DNA of 61,489 nt, from assembly GCA_002869695.1 (NCBI GenBank), contig PKUD01000210.1, positions 1-61,489 of the forward strand, in the 5' to 3' direction. Positions 4,991 to 9,268 of the stretch are shown one piece after another. This DNA comes from Desulfuromonas sp. Lineage in GTDB: Bacteria; Desulfobacterota; Desulfuromonadia; Desulfuromonadales; Geopsychrobacteraceae. A model generated the notes under the pieces. It was given only the letters and a program-made list of their open reading frames with translations, was not told where the DNA came from and did not search any database. Position numbers and translations under genes: made by a program. Within the stretch, counting starts at the first letter, position 1. Every line of letters starts with the position of its first letter.

Positions 4991-5413
4991 TCAGCTGCGG
5001 GGATGCCTGAGGTGACAGGTACCGGATTCACAGTCATCGGACGCCTTCGGTAACAGGTGGCGGTAGCGGGCAAACAGTGCATAACCGAAGCGGGACGCCA
5101 GGTGCACCCCGGGCAGGGAAATCACCCCGCCGAGCAGACGATAAAGAGAGCCGGAAGGAAACGCGCGCCACAGAACCAGAAAGGCATCGACCCCGGTCGC
5201 GAACCGGCCGTCGGCATCCCGGACGTGCAGCTCAGCCATGAACTGCTTCTGGCTGCGACCGTAGTCCTCGGCACAAAAATCGGCGCTGCTGATATCTATA
5301 AAAACCAGGCGCTGCTGCGGATTACGGCGGCGATAGACACTCATTTCCCTGGAACAGACAAGACAGGATCCATCATAGAAGATTTCCAGCGGGTATGCTG
5401 TTTCTTTTGTCAT
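4991..5413 (-). CDS. DCC-family (DUF393) thiol-disulfide oxidoreductase-like protein
   Basis: 140 residues, cytoplasmic. The N-terminal motif FYDGSCLVC (about residues 12-20) is the Asp-x-x-Cys-x-x-Cys signature that names the DCC family, a thioredoxin-like group of mostly unknown substrate. A FVDISS strand and the late GVDAF/LWRAFP segment also fit. A second, C-terminal cysteine pair (CESGTC) lies near the end. I use ATG 5413, which has AGGAGAGG upstream. Monocistronic; the divergent barrel gene starts at 5600. Confidence 0.8.
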   Translation of the reverse strand: MTKETAYPLEIFYDGSCLVCSREMSVYRRRNPQQRLVFIDISSADFCAEDYGRSQKQFMAELHVRDADGRFATGVDAFLVLWRAFPSGSLYRLLGGVISLPGVHLASRFGYALFARYRHLLPKASDDCESGTCHLRHPRS

Positions 5414-5524
5414 CACACCTCTCCTCTTCTATCTATTCTGCCGAATACGCCTGCCTGGACGCAAGTGTGAGCCGGCTTTTTCAGTAAAAAATTGGCCCCC
5501 TTTCTGTCTTTAAGGGATTTTCTG

Positions 5525-5554
5525 GTAAACCTATTCTTAACAGGTTTCGTCTAA
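5525..5554 (+). promoter_or_regulatory. ECF-sigma-type promoter of the outer-membrane barrel gene
   Basis: GTAAAC (5525-5530), 17 bases, CGTCTAA (5548-5554). The same two elements with a 16-base spacer lie before the ECF sigma gene (9240-9268) and the Gln-rich protein gene (7262-7290). The predicted start is about 40 bases before the GTG start codon. Confidence 0.7.
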
Positions 5555-5599
5555 AGGAGAGGTTCGCCATCCCTATCATCAATTTTAGAGGAGTTTACC

Positions 5600-6457
5600 G
5601 TGCATCAGTGGATATCAGTATGTTTGTTAATTGTGTGCCTCTGCCTGCCTGCTCTAGGGTGGGCATCAGGTGATGAAAAACCGATCGAACCTGAGTATAT
5701 CAACCTCTCCATCGGAACCGGCATCAAATACGAATCCGGCGATTACGGCACGGATTCCACCTCGGAACTCTTGAGGGTGCCGCTGATTCTCGAATGGTCC
5801 CCCTCCGAGCGCTTTGGCTTTGCCCTGGAGATTCCCTTCCTCCGATTGGATTCCAGCGGAGAGACAGTGCTGATCGGCGGCACCCCGACGCCGACCGGAA
5901 ACGGCAAAGGGATGATGCACGCCAACGACTCGGGGGACACGGTGACCACGACCACGATCGAAACGTCACATTCCGAAAGCGGACTGGGAGATGTCACCCT
6001 GGACACTTACCTGACCCTGCTCAAAAGCAGTCAACAGAACCCGCAACTGAGCGCTCTGCTTTATGCCAAGTTTCCCACCGGCGACGAAAAGAAAGGGCTT
6101 GGCTCCGGTGAATTTGACTGGGGTGTCGGGATGGGGTTGAGGAAGCGGCTCACCGACTTCTCATTTTACGCCGAGGCAATGCATGTTGTCCCGGGGACTT
6201 CGACGAACTATGATCCAGACAGTTACTGGGACTGGCTGCTCTCACTCAGTTACCGGGTCCGCTCGAACCTGCGCCCCGGCATTTCTCTGTCCGGAGGGAC
6301 CGCTCCCTTCGATGGGGCCGACAGCCCGCTGGAAGTTAAAATCAAACTCAGCGGACTGACCGGTGACCACGCCAGATACAATCTCTACCTCTCCCGGGGA
6401 TTGAGCGACGCCAGTCCAGACTGGGGAGTCGGAATTTTCGGCTATCTCGATCTCTGA
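5600..6457 (+). CDS. Outer-membrane beta-barrel protein (phenol-pathway MetA/transporter-like)
   Basis: 285 residues. A cleavable signal peptide (about 22 residues ending ALGWAS) precedes alternating amphipathic strands and a C-terminal Leu after a hydrophobic strand, typical of an outer-membrane barrel; the pattern LYAKFPTGDEKKGLGSGEFDWGVG resembles the putative MetA/transporter barrel family. A Thr/Ser/His-rich stretch near residues 105-130 is probably an extracellular loop. Translation starts at GTG 5600, preceded by GAGGAG. Its promoter matches the nearby ECF sigma promoters, so it is probably a member of that envelope regulon. Ligand unknown. Confidence 0.8.
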   Translation: MHQWISVCLLIVCLCLPALGWASGDEKPIEPEYINLSIGTGIKYESGDYGTDSTSELLRVPLILEWSPSERFGFALEIPFLRLDSSGETVLIGGTPTPTGNGKGMMHANDSGDTVTTTTIETSHSESGLGDVTLDTYLTLLKSSQQNPQLSALLYAKFPTGDEKKGLGSGEFDWGVGMGLRKRLTDFSFYAEAMHVVPGTSTNYDPDSYWDWLLSLSYRVRSNLRPGISLSGGTAPFDGADSPLEVKIKLSGLTGDHARYNLYLSRGLSDASPDWGVGIFGYLDL

Positions 6458-6621
6458 GCAGAAGGACTCTGACAGTTCTTTCCGGCGCCCTTACTGAGCA
6501 GTTTGATTGAGGCATGCAGGTATTCGGCAGAAATTCTCAGATTTTTCAACTCCGACTGGGCGAGCAAGCATTGCGCGGCCTTGAGCAGGTCCAGGGCCTG
6601 TTTCATATCGGATTCCGGCAT
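6442..6621 (-). CDS. Small hypothetical protein
   Basis: 59 residues, not recognised: a mainly helical peptide (MPESDMKQALDLL...) with two cysteines and a basic C-terminus. ATG 6621 has GGAG upstream. The last 16 bases overlap the end of the convergent barrel gene. No signal peptide. It lies between two members of the ECF regulon, but has no promoter of that type. Moderate support only: good ribosome site and helical composition, no homologue I can name. Confidence 0.45.
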   Translation of the reverse strand: MPESDMKQALDLLKAAQCLLAQSELKNLRISAEYLHASIKLLSKGAGKNCQSPSAQRSR

Positions 6622-6731
6622 AAAATCTCCACTCTTTCAACAAGAACCCCGACGCCACCCCGGCACAAAGAGATTAAACGTTGTGCCGAGGGGAACCTCG
6701 CGGTGTGATCCAGGACACAAGAGGCAGTAAA

Positions 6732-7211
6732 TCAGTTCGCGGTTCCTTCATCAGGAGTATCAGTGACATGGCTCTCGGGGTCGCGGATCCGGTCACGAAT
6801 CTGGGTCTGGTCATCAAGGTGAATCCGCTGACGATCTTGCGTCTTATCCGATTCCACGGCAACTGAAGTCCCGGGTTCGACCATATCCCGTTTTTGCTCA
6901 CGCACCTGCTCACGAATCTGGTTCTGGTTTTCATGACGAAGCTGCTTGCGCTCCTGAGGGGTTTCCGGAACCACAGCACCCGGAGTCCCGGGCTCCACCA
7001 TCTCCTGATTCTGTTCCAGAACCTGGTTGCGATGCTGATTTTCATACTGATAGCGGTCGGCATTACGCTCCTGCCGATATTCCTGCCGATCGATCCGGTC
7101 AGTACTGAAGCCGCTGTCGGCGCCACGATTCCCCCTGGCGAAGCTCAGAGCCGGAAATACCAGGCAGCAGGCAATGACAAGAGTGATGACTAAAAATAGT
7201 GTGCGTTTCAT
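6732..7211 (-). CDS. Exported Gln/Arg/Glu-rich repeat protein of the ECF regulon
   Basis: 159 residues, not recognised. A signal peptide (MKRTLFLVITLVIACCLVFP, cleavage after SFA) is followed by a highly hydrophilic, Gln/Asn/Arg-rich mature part that is probably periplasmic and helical or disordered. It contains two imperfect tandem copies of a unit of about 39 residues, each starting Gln-x-x-x-MVEPGT and ending in a Gln-Ile-Arg-rich helix. ATG 7211 is fixed by AGGAGG upstream; the longer frame start would spoil the signal peptide. The promoter at 7262-7290 is the same type as that of the ECF sigma operon, so it is likely under that sigma factor. Confidence 0.75.
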   Translation of the reverse strand: MKRTLFLVITLVIACCLVFPALSFARGNRGADSGFSTDRIDRQEYRQERNADRYQYENQHRNQVLEQNQEMVEPGTPGAVVPETPQERKQLRHENQNQIREQVREQKRDMVEPGTSVAVESDKTQDRQRIHLDDQTQIRDRIRDPESHVTDTPDEGTAN

Positions 7212-7261
7212 GATGTCCTCCTGTGAAGTAAAGGGTTGAACTTTCCGCGTCTCCTGTTCTT

Positions 7262-7290
7262 TTAGACGCACACGCGGGGGAACGGTTTAC
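7262..7290 (-). promoter_or_regulatory. ECF-sigma-type promoter of the Gln-rich exported protein
   Basis: Minus strand: GTAAAC (7290-7285), 16 bases, CGTCTAA (7268-7262), identical in both elements and spacing to the promoter of the ECF sigma operon. About 50 bases separate it from the start at 7211. Confidence 0.8.
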
Positions 7291-7354
7291 AATCAGAGGA
7301 CTTAAAATTTCATTGCTAGCAAAGAATCAACTGTCTTCCTCCAGAGATGGCCGC

Positions 7355-7378
7355 AAAAAGGCCGGGACATGCCCGGCC
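7355..7378 (-). terminator. Intrinsic terminator after the DUF3106 gene
   Basis: Minus strand GGCCGGG-CATGT-CCCGGCC followed by TTTTT, about 30 bases past the DUF3106 stop. It ends the sigma/anti-sigma operon before the next unit begins. Confidence 0.85.
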
Positions 7379-7409
7379 AGATGCTAAAGGAAAACTGTGT
7401 GAGGCAGGA

Positions 7410-7916
7410 TCAGTTTCGTCCATGCCCCCCGCCCCCGCTGCCGTTGGTCCGATTGAAATAGCGCTCACGCATTTCGCTGCGCCTTTCAGCCCGCTCGTCC
7501 GCAGACAGCCCTCGCAGTTTCTCCATTTCTTCCCGCAGTCGCTGCTGCTCCTCGACAGAGAGTTGATTCATCTGTTGCTTGAGCATACGCAACTTCTGCT
7601 GTTGCTCAGGGGAGAGCTGCTGCCAGGTACGGAAACGCTCTTTCAATTGCTGCTGCTCTTCAGCTGAGAGTTGGCGGAACATCTCAAGCCTTTGCCGCAG
7701 CAATTGCTGTCTTTCAGGGGCCAATTGCTTGAATTGCTGGTAACGCTCGCGCATCAGTTGCTGCTGTGCCGGGGAGAGCTGCTGCCAGCGCTCCACTGCC
7801 GCTGAACTTGTAGCCTCAGCAGAGATTGATTGTTCCGCTGTTGAGTCAGTGGCACTGGCGGTCAAGGGCCAGGATATCAGCAAAAAGATTAAAAACAGCA
7901 GGATACGACTTTTCAT
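7410..7916 (-). CDS. Exported DUF3106 protein with six 18-residue repeats
   Basis: 168 residues. Signal peptide (MKSRILLFLIFLLISWPLTA, cleavage after ASA), then residues 44-151 form six tandem 18-residue repeats with the consensus [W/F]xQLSxEQQQxLRxRxxx, and a Gly-rich tail ending GGGGHGRN. This is DUF3106, a family often found beside ECF sigma genes; the regular amphipathic repeats suggest a periplasmic helical solenoid or coil somewhat like Spy/CpxP-type sensors, which is inference. Last gene of the operon; its ATG overlaps the stop of the upstream gene (ATGA), so it is translationally coupled. Confidence 0.85.
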   Translation of the reverse strand: MKSRILLFLIFLLISWPLTASATDSTAEQSISAEATSSAAVERWQQLSPAQQQLMRERYQQFKQLAPERQQLLRQRLEMFRQLSAEEQQQLKERFRTWQQLSPEQQQKLRMLKQQMNQLSVEEQQRLREEMEKLRGLSADERAERRSEMRERYFNRTNGSGGGGHGRN

Positions 7917-8110
7917 GAGTTTTCCTCCAGGACTTCAACGTTCTCCAGGTTATTCAGCAGCTCCATCAGCTCAAGCAATTCCAGCAGTTCAGCAACCTTG
8001 CGATCCTCTTCGCTGATCTGACCCGGTGGCGACTCCGGCTGTTCTTCCGCACCACTGATCGACAGTGTTGCAAACATAACCATGAGCAGTAAAACGACAA
8101 TTCGACTCAT
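7913..8110 (-). CDS. Small exported Leu/Glu-rich protein
   Basis: 65 residues, not recognised. A signal peptide (MSRIVVLLLMVMFATLSISG) is followed by about 45 residues, acidic, containing a run of Leu-Leu-Glu-Leu repeats (AELLELLELMELLNNLENVE) that would form an amphipathic helix. The periplasmic tail of the anti-sigma factor just upstream has a closely similar Leu/Glu/Asp pattern, so the two may pair. ATG 8110 overlaps the anti-sigma stop as ATGA; an upstream in-frame start two codons earlier is less likely. DUF3106 follows with another ATGA overlap. Confidence 0.75.
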   Translation of the reverse strand: MSRIVVLLLMVMFATLSISGAEEQPESPPGQISEEDRKVAELLELLELMELLNNLENVEVLEENS

Positions 8111-8556
8111 CCCCACTGCTCCATTTCCTGCAACAGTTCGAGATCCTTGAGCAGATCAAGGTCCTGCAGCAGTTCCAACTGTTCCAGCATCTCAAAATCA
8201 GCCATCGCAGGTTGGCCAGGCGCATTCGGCACCGTCAGATCGACAGGGCGTAACAACAGGATTGCCGCCACCATGGCCGCTGCAGCCAGCCCCCCGGCCC
8301 AGATCCCGGCTCGCGACTTCGATCTCTGCTGCGCTTGACTGGAAACCCTTTCGGCAAAACTGCGCCGCTGTGCCTGGCTGAGCTGCAGATGCGGTGTCGG
8401 AACGGCCGCCAGAACTTTCCGGATCTCTTTTAAGTCGTTCTGGCAGGCCGAGCAGTGCTGCAGGTGTAATTCCAGGTTTTGCGCTTCTGCCCCGGCCAGT
8501 TCGTCGTAATGATAGAGAGTCAACAGCTCTTTGTTGCATGGCTTATTCGGTTTCAT
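8107..8556 (-). CDS. Anti-sigma factor with zinc-finger domain and Leu-rich periplasmic tail
   Basis: 149 residues. The N-terminal cytoplasmic domain carries the zf-HC2 (anti-sigma) signature His-x3-Cys-x2-Cys (HLQHCSAC, about residues 30-37) that binds ECF sigma factors. One membrane segment (about 84-101, IWAGGLAAAAMVAAILLL) places the C-terminus in the periplasm. There residues 118-149 form a Leu/Asp/Glu helix (MLEQLELLQDLDLLKDLELL). It overlaps the sigma gene end by 14 bases and the next gene by ATGA. It should hold the sigma factor at the membrane until an envelope signal arrives. Confidence 0.88.
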   Translation of the reverse strand: MKPNKPCNKELLTLYHYDELAGAEAQNLELHLQHCSACQNDLKEIRKVLAAVPTPHLQLSQAQRRSFAERVSSQAQQRSKSRAGIWAGGLAAAAMVAAILLLRPVDLTVPNAPGQPAMADFEMLEQLELLQDLDLLKDLELLQEMEQWG

Positions 8557-9199
8557 AGTTCGCCTCCGCTGTTTCGCCGAATTCTTTGCGAAACTGGGTA
8601 ACTGCCCTGTGCAGGTGGGCCTTGACTGTCCCTTCCTTGAGCTCCAGTGTGGCCGCTATCTCCCGGATCGGCATACCCTCCATGTGGCGCAGCACAAAGA
8701 CAGTTTTCTGGCGCGCTGGCAATTTTTCCAGCACCTGTTGCATGCGCCGTCCGGCCTCCCTGGCCAAAAGTTGCTCCTGCGGTGAGGCCCGGTCATCAGC
8801 GACCAGATCTAGCGGATCCGGTTGTTCAGAGTTTTCGCTGCGGGAGAAAAAAAACTTTCTTCGCAACTTCTCCCTGCGTAAATGGTCAATCGCAAGGCGA
8901 CTCACGGTACGGTAAAGCCAGGTACCGATCCGGCTCTCACCGCGGAACCCGGGAAGTGATCGATAAAGACGGAGAAACGCTTCCTGGGCGATCTCCTCGG
9001 CGATCTCCCGCTGTCCGACAAGGCGCCAGGCCAGAGCAATGATTTTTTCGCTGTGCATTGCCACCAGTTGCGCAAACGCCTGCTCATGACCGCTGCGAGC
9101 CTGATCAAGCAGGATATCCTCAGTCACCGACTGGACCGGCAGAGAACAGCTATCGTCCATTGTCATCACGAGGGAACCCTTCAACTTGAACTCCGGCAT
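8543..9199 (-). CDS. ECF-type RNA polymerase sigma factor
   Basis: 218 residues. Region 2 (about residues 30-110) has the ECF pattern ending in RIGTWLYRTVSRLAIDHLRR, and region 4 (about 140-205) ends with LPARQKTVFVLRHMEGMPIREIAATLELKEGTVKAHLHRA, the -35-binding helix-turn-helix. A short acidic linker joins them. The start is uncertain: ATG 9199 has no clear ribosome site, and ATG 9166 is an alternative that keeps all of region 2. Its promoter pattern is repeated before two other nearby genes, which suggests autoregulation and defines a local regulon. First gene of a four-gene coupled operon with its anti-sigma factor. Confidence 0.92.
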   Translation of the reverse strand: MPEFKLKGSLVMTMDDSCSLPVQSVTEDILLDQARSGHEQAFAQLVAMHSEKIIALAWRLVGQREIAEEIAQEAFLRLYRSLPGFRGESRIGTWLYRTVSRLAIDHLRREKLRRKFFFSRSENSEQPDPLDLVADDRASPQEQLLAREAGRRMQQVLEKLPARQKTVFVLRHMEGMPIREIAATLELKEGTVKAHLHRAVTQFRKEFGETAEANYETE

Positions 9200-9239
9200 G
9201 TCGAGAAAATTAAACGGATATCCTTTTCGACTTGCCTAC

Positions 9240-9268
9240 TTAGACGGATAAACCTAAAGAAAGTTTAC
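9240..9268 (-). promoter_or_regulatory. ECF-sigma-type promoter of the sigma/anti-sigma operon
   Basis: Minus strand: GTAAAC (9268-9263), 16 bases, CGTCTAA (9246-9240). Resembles the sigma-E class layout (AACTT, 16 bases, TCTAA). The start of the sigma gene lies about 35 bases downstream. Confidence 0.8.

What the first reader, a model, noticed from the sequence alone, without database searches (positions are those of the whole stretch)
5525..9268. Three units share one ECF promoter pattern: GTAAAC-N16/17-CGTCTAA
The sigma/anti-sigma operon (9240-9268), the Gln-rich exported protein (7262-7290) and the outer-membrane barrel gene (5525-5554) carry the same 6+7 bases; spacing is 16, 16 and 17. 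Two are on the minus strand and one on the plus strand. I found no further copy in the window. The simplest reading is that the ECF sigma factor drives its own operon plus two envelope genes, forming a compact regulon.
Basis: partly seen in the sequence, partly recalled or inferred. Interest (0 to 1): 0.85.

Follow-up and report, generated by a model that had tools for sequence, protein, structure and literature searches.

The report
Self-activating envelope-stress sigma-factor regulon
Three genes in this stretch carry the same two-part start signal, which very probably belongs to one stress-type sigma factor that switches on its own operon and a scattered set of cell-envelope genes in many related bacteria; the operon also encodes an unusual small exported protein that resembles part of the sigma factor's own inhibitor.

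Summary
In detail: GTAAAC-N16/17-CGTCTAA occurs exactly three times in the window, at the stated places, strands and spacings. It is not chance: the 3.29-Mb genome holds 7 exact copies and none of the reversed control pattern. The four extra copies precede two small exported Gln- or Asp/Arg-rich proteins, a DUF4382 lipoprotein and a gene cut by a contig end. A close orthologue of the sigma gene is found in 46 of 136 genomes of the order, and in all 46 the motif lies upstream of it (20 exact, 26 with 1-3 mismatches). Sigma-bearing genomes hold 71 exact sites against 8 control sites; the 90 others hold 16 against 23. No expression data exist here. The operon is sigma, zinc-finger anti-sigma, a small exported acidic leucine-rich protein (in 19 genomes), and DUF3106. 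The small protein matches the anti-sigma factor's predicted periplasmic tail beyond composition, suggesting a secreted decoy; this is a hypothesis.

The parts
9240..9268 (-). Predicted ECF promoter of the sigma operon: -35 GTAAAC (9263-9268), spacing 16, -10 CGTCTAA (9240-9246)
   Evidence: motif (0-3 mismatches) upstream of the sigma orthologue in 46 of 46 genomes
7262..7290 (-). Predicted ECF promoter of the Gln-rich exported protein, spacing 16, 50 bases before ATG 7211
   Evidence: sites before similarly placed small exported genes in G020 (exact) and G106 (1 mismatch)
5525..5554 (+). Predicted ECF promoter of the outer-membrane barrel gene, spacing 17, 45 bases before GTG 5600
   Evidence: sites before barrel-like genes in G020, G040, G108 (exact) and G106 (1 mismatch)
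8543..9199 (-). ECF sigma factor (Sigma70_r2 and Sigma70_r4_2); real start may be GTG 9169, ATG 9166 or ATG 9160
8107..8556 (-). Zinc-finger anti-sigma factor (zf-HC2, HxxxCxxC), hydrophobic segment read as membrane-spanning, C-terminal acidic leucine-rich tail taken to be periplasmic
7913..8110 (-). Small exported acidic leucine-rich protein (65 aa) resembling the anti-sigma tail; start overlaps the anti-sigma stop
7410..7916 (-). Exported DUF3106 protein, basic/Gln-rich helical repeats; start overlaps the previous stop
6732..7211 (-). Gln/Arg-rich exported protein, no Pfam family; C-terminal RDP shared with six promoter-linked small proteins; predicted regulon member
5600..6457 (+). Predicted outer-membrane barrel (Phenol_MetA_deg); predicted regulon member

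Best explanation
The motif is the promoter recognised by the ECF sigma factor at 8543-9199. Held by the zinc-finger anti-sigma factor, the sigma factor is released by an envelope signal (unknown) and then transcribes its own four-gene operon (positive feedback) and a scattered set of genes for exported proteins: a barrel, Gln/Asn/Asp/Arg-rich small exported proteins and lipoproteins; in relatives also 17-kDa/glycine-zipper lipoproteins, OmpA-type lipoproteins and a DUF3300 protein. Shown by sequence: sites, positions, conservation, co-occurrence, operon layout. Inferred: that this sigma factor binds there, autoactivation, co-transcription, and the envelope signal.
For: 7 exact genome sites vs 0 control. 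Upstream of sigma in 46 of 46 orthologue-bearing genomes: 44 tabulated, one promoter per genome (18 exact, 17 one, 8 two, 1 three mismatches), plus G075 and G115 exact by coordinates; 60 permuted motifs reached <=2 mismatches in 0.18 of 44 loci on average, at most 2. G, T, A, C at -35 positions 1, 2, 4, 6 and CGTC of the -10 invariant in 44 of 44. Exact motif in 32 of 46 sigma+ and 12 of 90 sigma- genomes of the order, Fisher P 6e-11 uncorrected for kinship; sites/control 71 vs 8 and 16 vs 23. Same class, other orders: 0 of 141 genomes with the sigma at E<=1e-30, 7 sites vs 45 control (totals counted by hand). Spacing in sigma+ genomes 62x16, 8x17, 1x15. Of 51 non-sigma exact sites in sigma+ genomes I read 36; 30 precede a gene with a signal-peptide-like or lipoprotein start, judged by eye.
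Against: No transcription data. Of the 36 sites read, 2 precede genes not clearly exported (G020:C59; G005:C1:3708718, a large protein with a hydrophobic N terminus), 2 no convincing gene (G115:C1:2813368, G064:C63), 2 a contig end. 14 of 46 sigma+ genomes have no exact copy, only sites with mismatches. 12 genomes carry an exact site without a found sigma orthologue; G022 and G114 have a DUF3106 hit and may be incomplete, G026 has one beside another ECF gene, the rest are unexplained. Own genome has two further PF08281 matches over cut-off that could in principle share the promoter. Picking the best match upstream favours the motif, though the permuted control was treated alike.
Confidence: 0.9

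Rival explanations
1. The motif is the promoter of a different ECF sigma factor of the same cell, and the window sigma gene is merely one of its targets.
For: Two other PF08281 matches over the cut-off in the genome; 12 genomes have sites without this sigma.
Against: Sites track this sigma across 136 genomes and sit upstream of its orthologue in 46 of 46; in other orders of the class sites fall below control.
Confidence: 0.06
2. The two boxes are a binding site for an ordinary transcription factor, not a promoter.
For: Sequence conservation alone cannot tell operator from promoter.
Against: Non-palindromic boxes of ECF form at 16/17 spacing, pointing at an exported-protein gene in 30 of 36 non-sigma sites read, and linked to a sigma gene.
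Confidence: 0.02
3. Chance recurrence of a 13-base pattern.
For: Relaxed versions of the pattern occur near or below control level.
Against: 7 vs 0 in the genome, 71 vs 8 across sigma+ genomes, permuted-motif control.
Confidence: 0.005

Closest known systems
Classical autoregulated ECF sigma factors with zinc-finger anti-sigma factors (RpoE/SigW-like)
   Same: sigma2+sigma4 domains, AAC/CGT promoter, adjacent anti-sigma with HxxxCxxC, promoter upstream of own operon; best solved-structure match by sequence is a SigW (5wuq)
   Different: Scores far below the SigW and RpoE equivalog cut-offs; extended -35 GTAAACCTTT; extra operon genes (acidic Leu-rich small protein, DUF3106)
RpoE-RseA-RseB and CnrH-CnrY-CnrX type systems (recalled, not compared here)
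   Same: An envelope protein encoded beside the anti-sigma factor and expected to act on its periplasmic part
   Different: DUF3106 model has no significant match in the PDB; no direct sequence comparison made
TonB-dependent transducers that protect an anti-sigma factor from proteolysis (PMC11637429; title and start of abstract seen in the listing)
   Same: Precedent for a partner protein shielding an anti-sigma factor
   Different: No TonB-dependent receptor among the four operon genes

Membership tests
ECF sigma factor (features as given in passages of PMC8103513, which adds that later definitions kept only the domain make-up) | Only sigma2 and sigma4 domains, linker under 50 residues | tested here: met
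   Sigma70_r2 at 45-111 and Sigma70_r4_2 at 152-200; linker about 40
ECF sigma factor (as above) | Target promoters with AAC in -35 and CGT in -10 | tested here: met
   GTAAAC / CGTCTAA; that they are its targets is inferred
ECF sigma factor (as above) | Co-transcribed with cognate anti-sigma factor | tested here: inconclusive
   Overlapping genes on one strand; no transcript data
ECF sigma factor (as above) | Positive autoregulation | tested here: inconclusive
   Motif upstream of the operon in 46 of 46 genomes; activity not measurable here
Zinc-finger anti-sigma (ZAS) | HxxxCxxC motif near the N terminus | tested here: met
   H31, C35, C38 invariant in 11 of 11 aligned; zf-HC2 over cut-off
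SigW (TIGR02948) or RpoE (TIGR02939) equivalog | Score over the curated cut-off | tested here: not met
   117.9 of 243.1 and 100.8 of 236.15 bits
Numbered ECF groups of the current classification | Group HMM and group neighbourhood | not testable with these tools
   No ECF-group models on hand; the classification paper I asked for is not held
DUF3106 (PF11304) | Score over Pfam cut-off | tested here: met
   91 vs 24.3 bits
CpxP/Spy/CnrX-like periplasmic sensors | Same fold | tested here: inconclusive
   No PDB match with E up to 0.001 for the DUF3106 model, mean pLDDT 78.6

The most novel reading that the evidence does not exclude
The operon encodes a secreted decoy of its own anti-sigma factor. 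The acidic leucine-rich tail of the anti-sigma factor, assumed to reach the periplasm, is the sensing element, bound by the basic helical-repeat protein DUF3106 (which shields it from a protease or holds it inactive). The small exported protein mimics that tail and competes for DUF3106, so that induction of the operon itself tunes or resets the sigma factor's release.
Probability: 0.22. Interest if true: 0.75.

Novelty: new variant of a known kind. Interest (0 to 1): 0.55.

Why it matters
It gives a predicted, testable promoter and target list for a stress sigma factor in a group (probably Desulfuromonadales) where the open-access listings I searched showed no described regulon of this kind (listings only, 20 of 66, 1 of 1 and 5 of 5 papers shown). 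It ties families of unknown function (DUF3106, DUF4382, DUF2202, DUF3300, low-complexity exported proteins) to one predicted circuit. If the decoy idea holds, it would be a form of anti-sigma control that I did not see in the listings (no paper on DUF3106; 10 of 161 papers shown).

Tried and rejected
Relaxed motif (GTAAAC-N14-19-CGTC, or 2 mismatches) in the own genome: near or below control, so not used to name members. The three 1-mismatch sites at spacings 16 and 17 (other spacings not searched with mismatches): C154 precedes a DUF2202 exported protein (likely member); C173 lies 170 bases before an exported protein, with a short frame between (uncertain); C48 looks to lie inside coding sequence (rejected). 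DUF3106 as a solved fold: best PDB sequence match E 0.0048, to a 44-residue chain, and no significant Foldseek match. Anti-sigma model: mean pLDDT 64.2; the tail is drawn as a helix but mostly at pLDDT below 50, so not used as evidence. Paper searches: DUF3106 in 0 papers of the library; a motif-letter search listed 15 of 108 papers, unrelated by title; the SbrI/SbrR search (10 of 15 listed) showed no paper centred on that system and was dropped; a search pairing anti-sigma with the other families listed 5 papers, none on such a regulon by title. Passages of the Geobacter metallireducens genome paper (PMC2700814) list a putative RpoE but, in what I saw, no promoter or regulon.
Full report
The observation. 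In the window's own genome (219 contigs, 3.29 Mb) it occurs seven times and the same pattern read backwards never. The base-composition expectation is 0.23. Looser versions fall to or below control level, so the exact form carries the signal in a single genome.

The other four sites of the genome. C67:17884 lies 50 bases before a 107-aa Gln-rich exported protein; C121:4437 lies 77 bases before an exported Asp/Gln/Arg-rich protein; C102:8841 about 75 bases before a lipoprotein with DUF4382; C52:19471 37 bases before a gene cut by the contig end after MAIKKILL. A one-mismatch site (C154:9973) lies 45 bases before an exported DUF2202 protein. These distances rest on the start codons I chose; for the sigma gene itself it is 40 bases to ATG 9199, or 70-79 to the later starts. 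Export was judged by eye from the N termini.

Conservation. Among 136 genomes of the order, 46 hold a close orthologue of the sigma factor (E up to 1e-30). In 44 of these I read the upstream region and tabulated the best site, one per genome: 18 exact, 17 with one, 8 with two, 1 with three mismatches; 37 with spacing 16 and 7 with 17; CGTC invariant in 44 of 44; C, T, T, T in the four positions after GTAAAC in 36, 31, 37 and 32 of 44. The remaining two, G075 and G115, have exact sites just upstream by coordinates. Sixty permuted motifs reached 2 mismatches or fewer in 0.18 of 44 loci on average, 2 at most. In G109 and G108 the site lies unusually far (175 and 223 bases) before the first in-frame start; for this reason the automatic count, limited to 360 bases before the aligned region, misses one locus (G108). 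The best site was picked per locus, which favours the motif; the permuted control was treated alike.

Co-occurrence. Exact sites occur in 32 of 46 sigma-bearing and 12 of 90 other genomes of the order (Fisher P 6e-11, not corrected for kinship); site totals are 71 against 8 control and 16 against 23 control. In 141 genomes of the same class but other orders there is no orthologue at E up to 1e-30, and 7 sites against 45 control (counted by hand from its table); one of the 7 (G269, GTAAACCTTT, spacing 16) looks like a genuine copy and was not followed. Spacing among the 71 sites is 62x16, 8x17, 1x15, although 15-18 were allowed. The genus-mate G001 has neither sigma nor motif. Of the 12 exceptions, G022 and G114 carry DUF3106, so their sigma gene may be missing for lack of completeness, and G026 has DUF3106 beside another ECF gene; the other nine are unexplained.

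What the sites control elsewhere. Of the 71 exact sites in sigma-bearing genomes 20 precede the sigma gene and 51 do not. I read 36 of the 51: 30 precede a gene with a signal-peptide or lipoprotein start, judged by eye; 2 precede genes not clearly exported; 2 no convincing gene; 2 a contig end. Recurrent kinds: barrel-like proteins (G020, G040, G108 exact; G106 one mismatch; recognised by eye, and the G108 protein, the only one of these four scanned, hit no Pfam family), and small Gln/Asn/Asp/Arg-rich exported proteins. A 17-kDa/glycine-zipper-like lipoprotein follows a one-mismatch site in G005, G036, G024, G071 and G108 (Pfam scanned for G108 only), divergent from the sigma operon in G005, G036 and G071. 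An OmpA-type glycine-zipper lipoprotein (242 bases away) and a DUF3300 protein follow exact sites in G070, a similar OmpA-type one in G120 (by eye). Seven of the small proteins, the window's own included, align to a shared C-terminal RDP (7 of 7).

The operon. Each gene start overlaps the end of the gene before: sigma, zinc-finger anti-sigma, small exported protein, DUF3106. The anti-sigma HxxxCxxC is invariant in 11 of 11 aligned. In 41 of the 44 loci the C terminus of the anti-sigma factor could be read, and in all 41 it ends in an acidic leucine-rich stretch, mostly in six-residue steps such as ELLQDL-DLLKDL-ELLQEM. The small protein is found in 19 of the 44 genomes; I did not find it in the f4 operons or in most f12 operons, where DUF3106 seems to follow the anti-sigma gene directly, and three loci (G002, G036, G080) are cut too short to tell. 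My pattern search for it missed some true cases that I found by eye, so absence is provisional. Its mature part aligns with the anti-sigma tail with an hhalign score of 37.2, against a maximum of 21.7 in two sets of 100 column shuffles and 13.9 for the reversed alignment (18 small proteins, 14 tails). The tails are acidic (-6 to -10 in 11), the small proteins acidic (-2 to -15 in 18), DUF3106 basic (+5 to +32 in 14). DUF3106 is modelled as successive helices (mean pLDDT 78.6) without a significant counterpart among solved structures. From this I propose, as inference, that DUF3106 binds the anti-sigma tail and that the small protein competes for it. Nothing here shows binding, and similar amphipathic helices could have another cause, for example a shared membrane or chaperone surface. 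That many operons seem to lack the small protein means that the core circuit can work without it.

Organism and history. In the sigma tree (43 rows) the rows of the window's family are scattered and the window's sigma groups with G106 of family f5 and two g5 genomes, which suggests transfer between families, or old paralogues with losses; I did not test between these.

Verdict. It is a new ECF regulon of ordinary logic with an unusual sensing module; whether that module works as a decoy is open.

Noticed in passing
G003:C11, G010:C1, G028:C514, G014:C29, G023:C150, G009:C27, G026:C18: A second ECF lineage (28-33% identical to the window's) also lies about 1 kb from a DUF3106 gene, so DUF3106 may be a wider partner of ECF systems.
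   Followed up: no
L148 and L149 (G005): One genome carries two copies of the sigma operon with the same one-mismatch promoter, each with a divergent 17-kDa-type lipoprotein.
   Followed up: partly
window 4991-5416 (-): DCC1-like thiol-disulfide oxidoreductase gene divergent from the barrel gene.
   Followed up: no
window 6442-6621 (-): Small 59-aa open frame between the barrel and the Gln-rich gene, possibly a gene; no family searched.
   Followed up: no
G070:C64:215216, G068:C53:354, G074:C7:110390: The whole 29-base promoter, spacer included (GTAAACCTCCAAGGCTTGATCTCGTCTAA), is identical in three genomes of family f12; in G070 it lies 242 bases before an OmpA-type lipoprotein gene.
   Followed up: partly
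G269:C226:5165-5193: A motif copy with the extended -35 and spacing 16 in a genome of another order where no close sigma orthologue was found.
   Followed up: no
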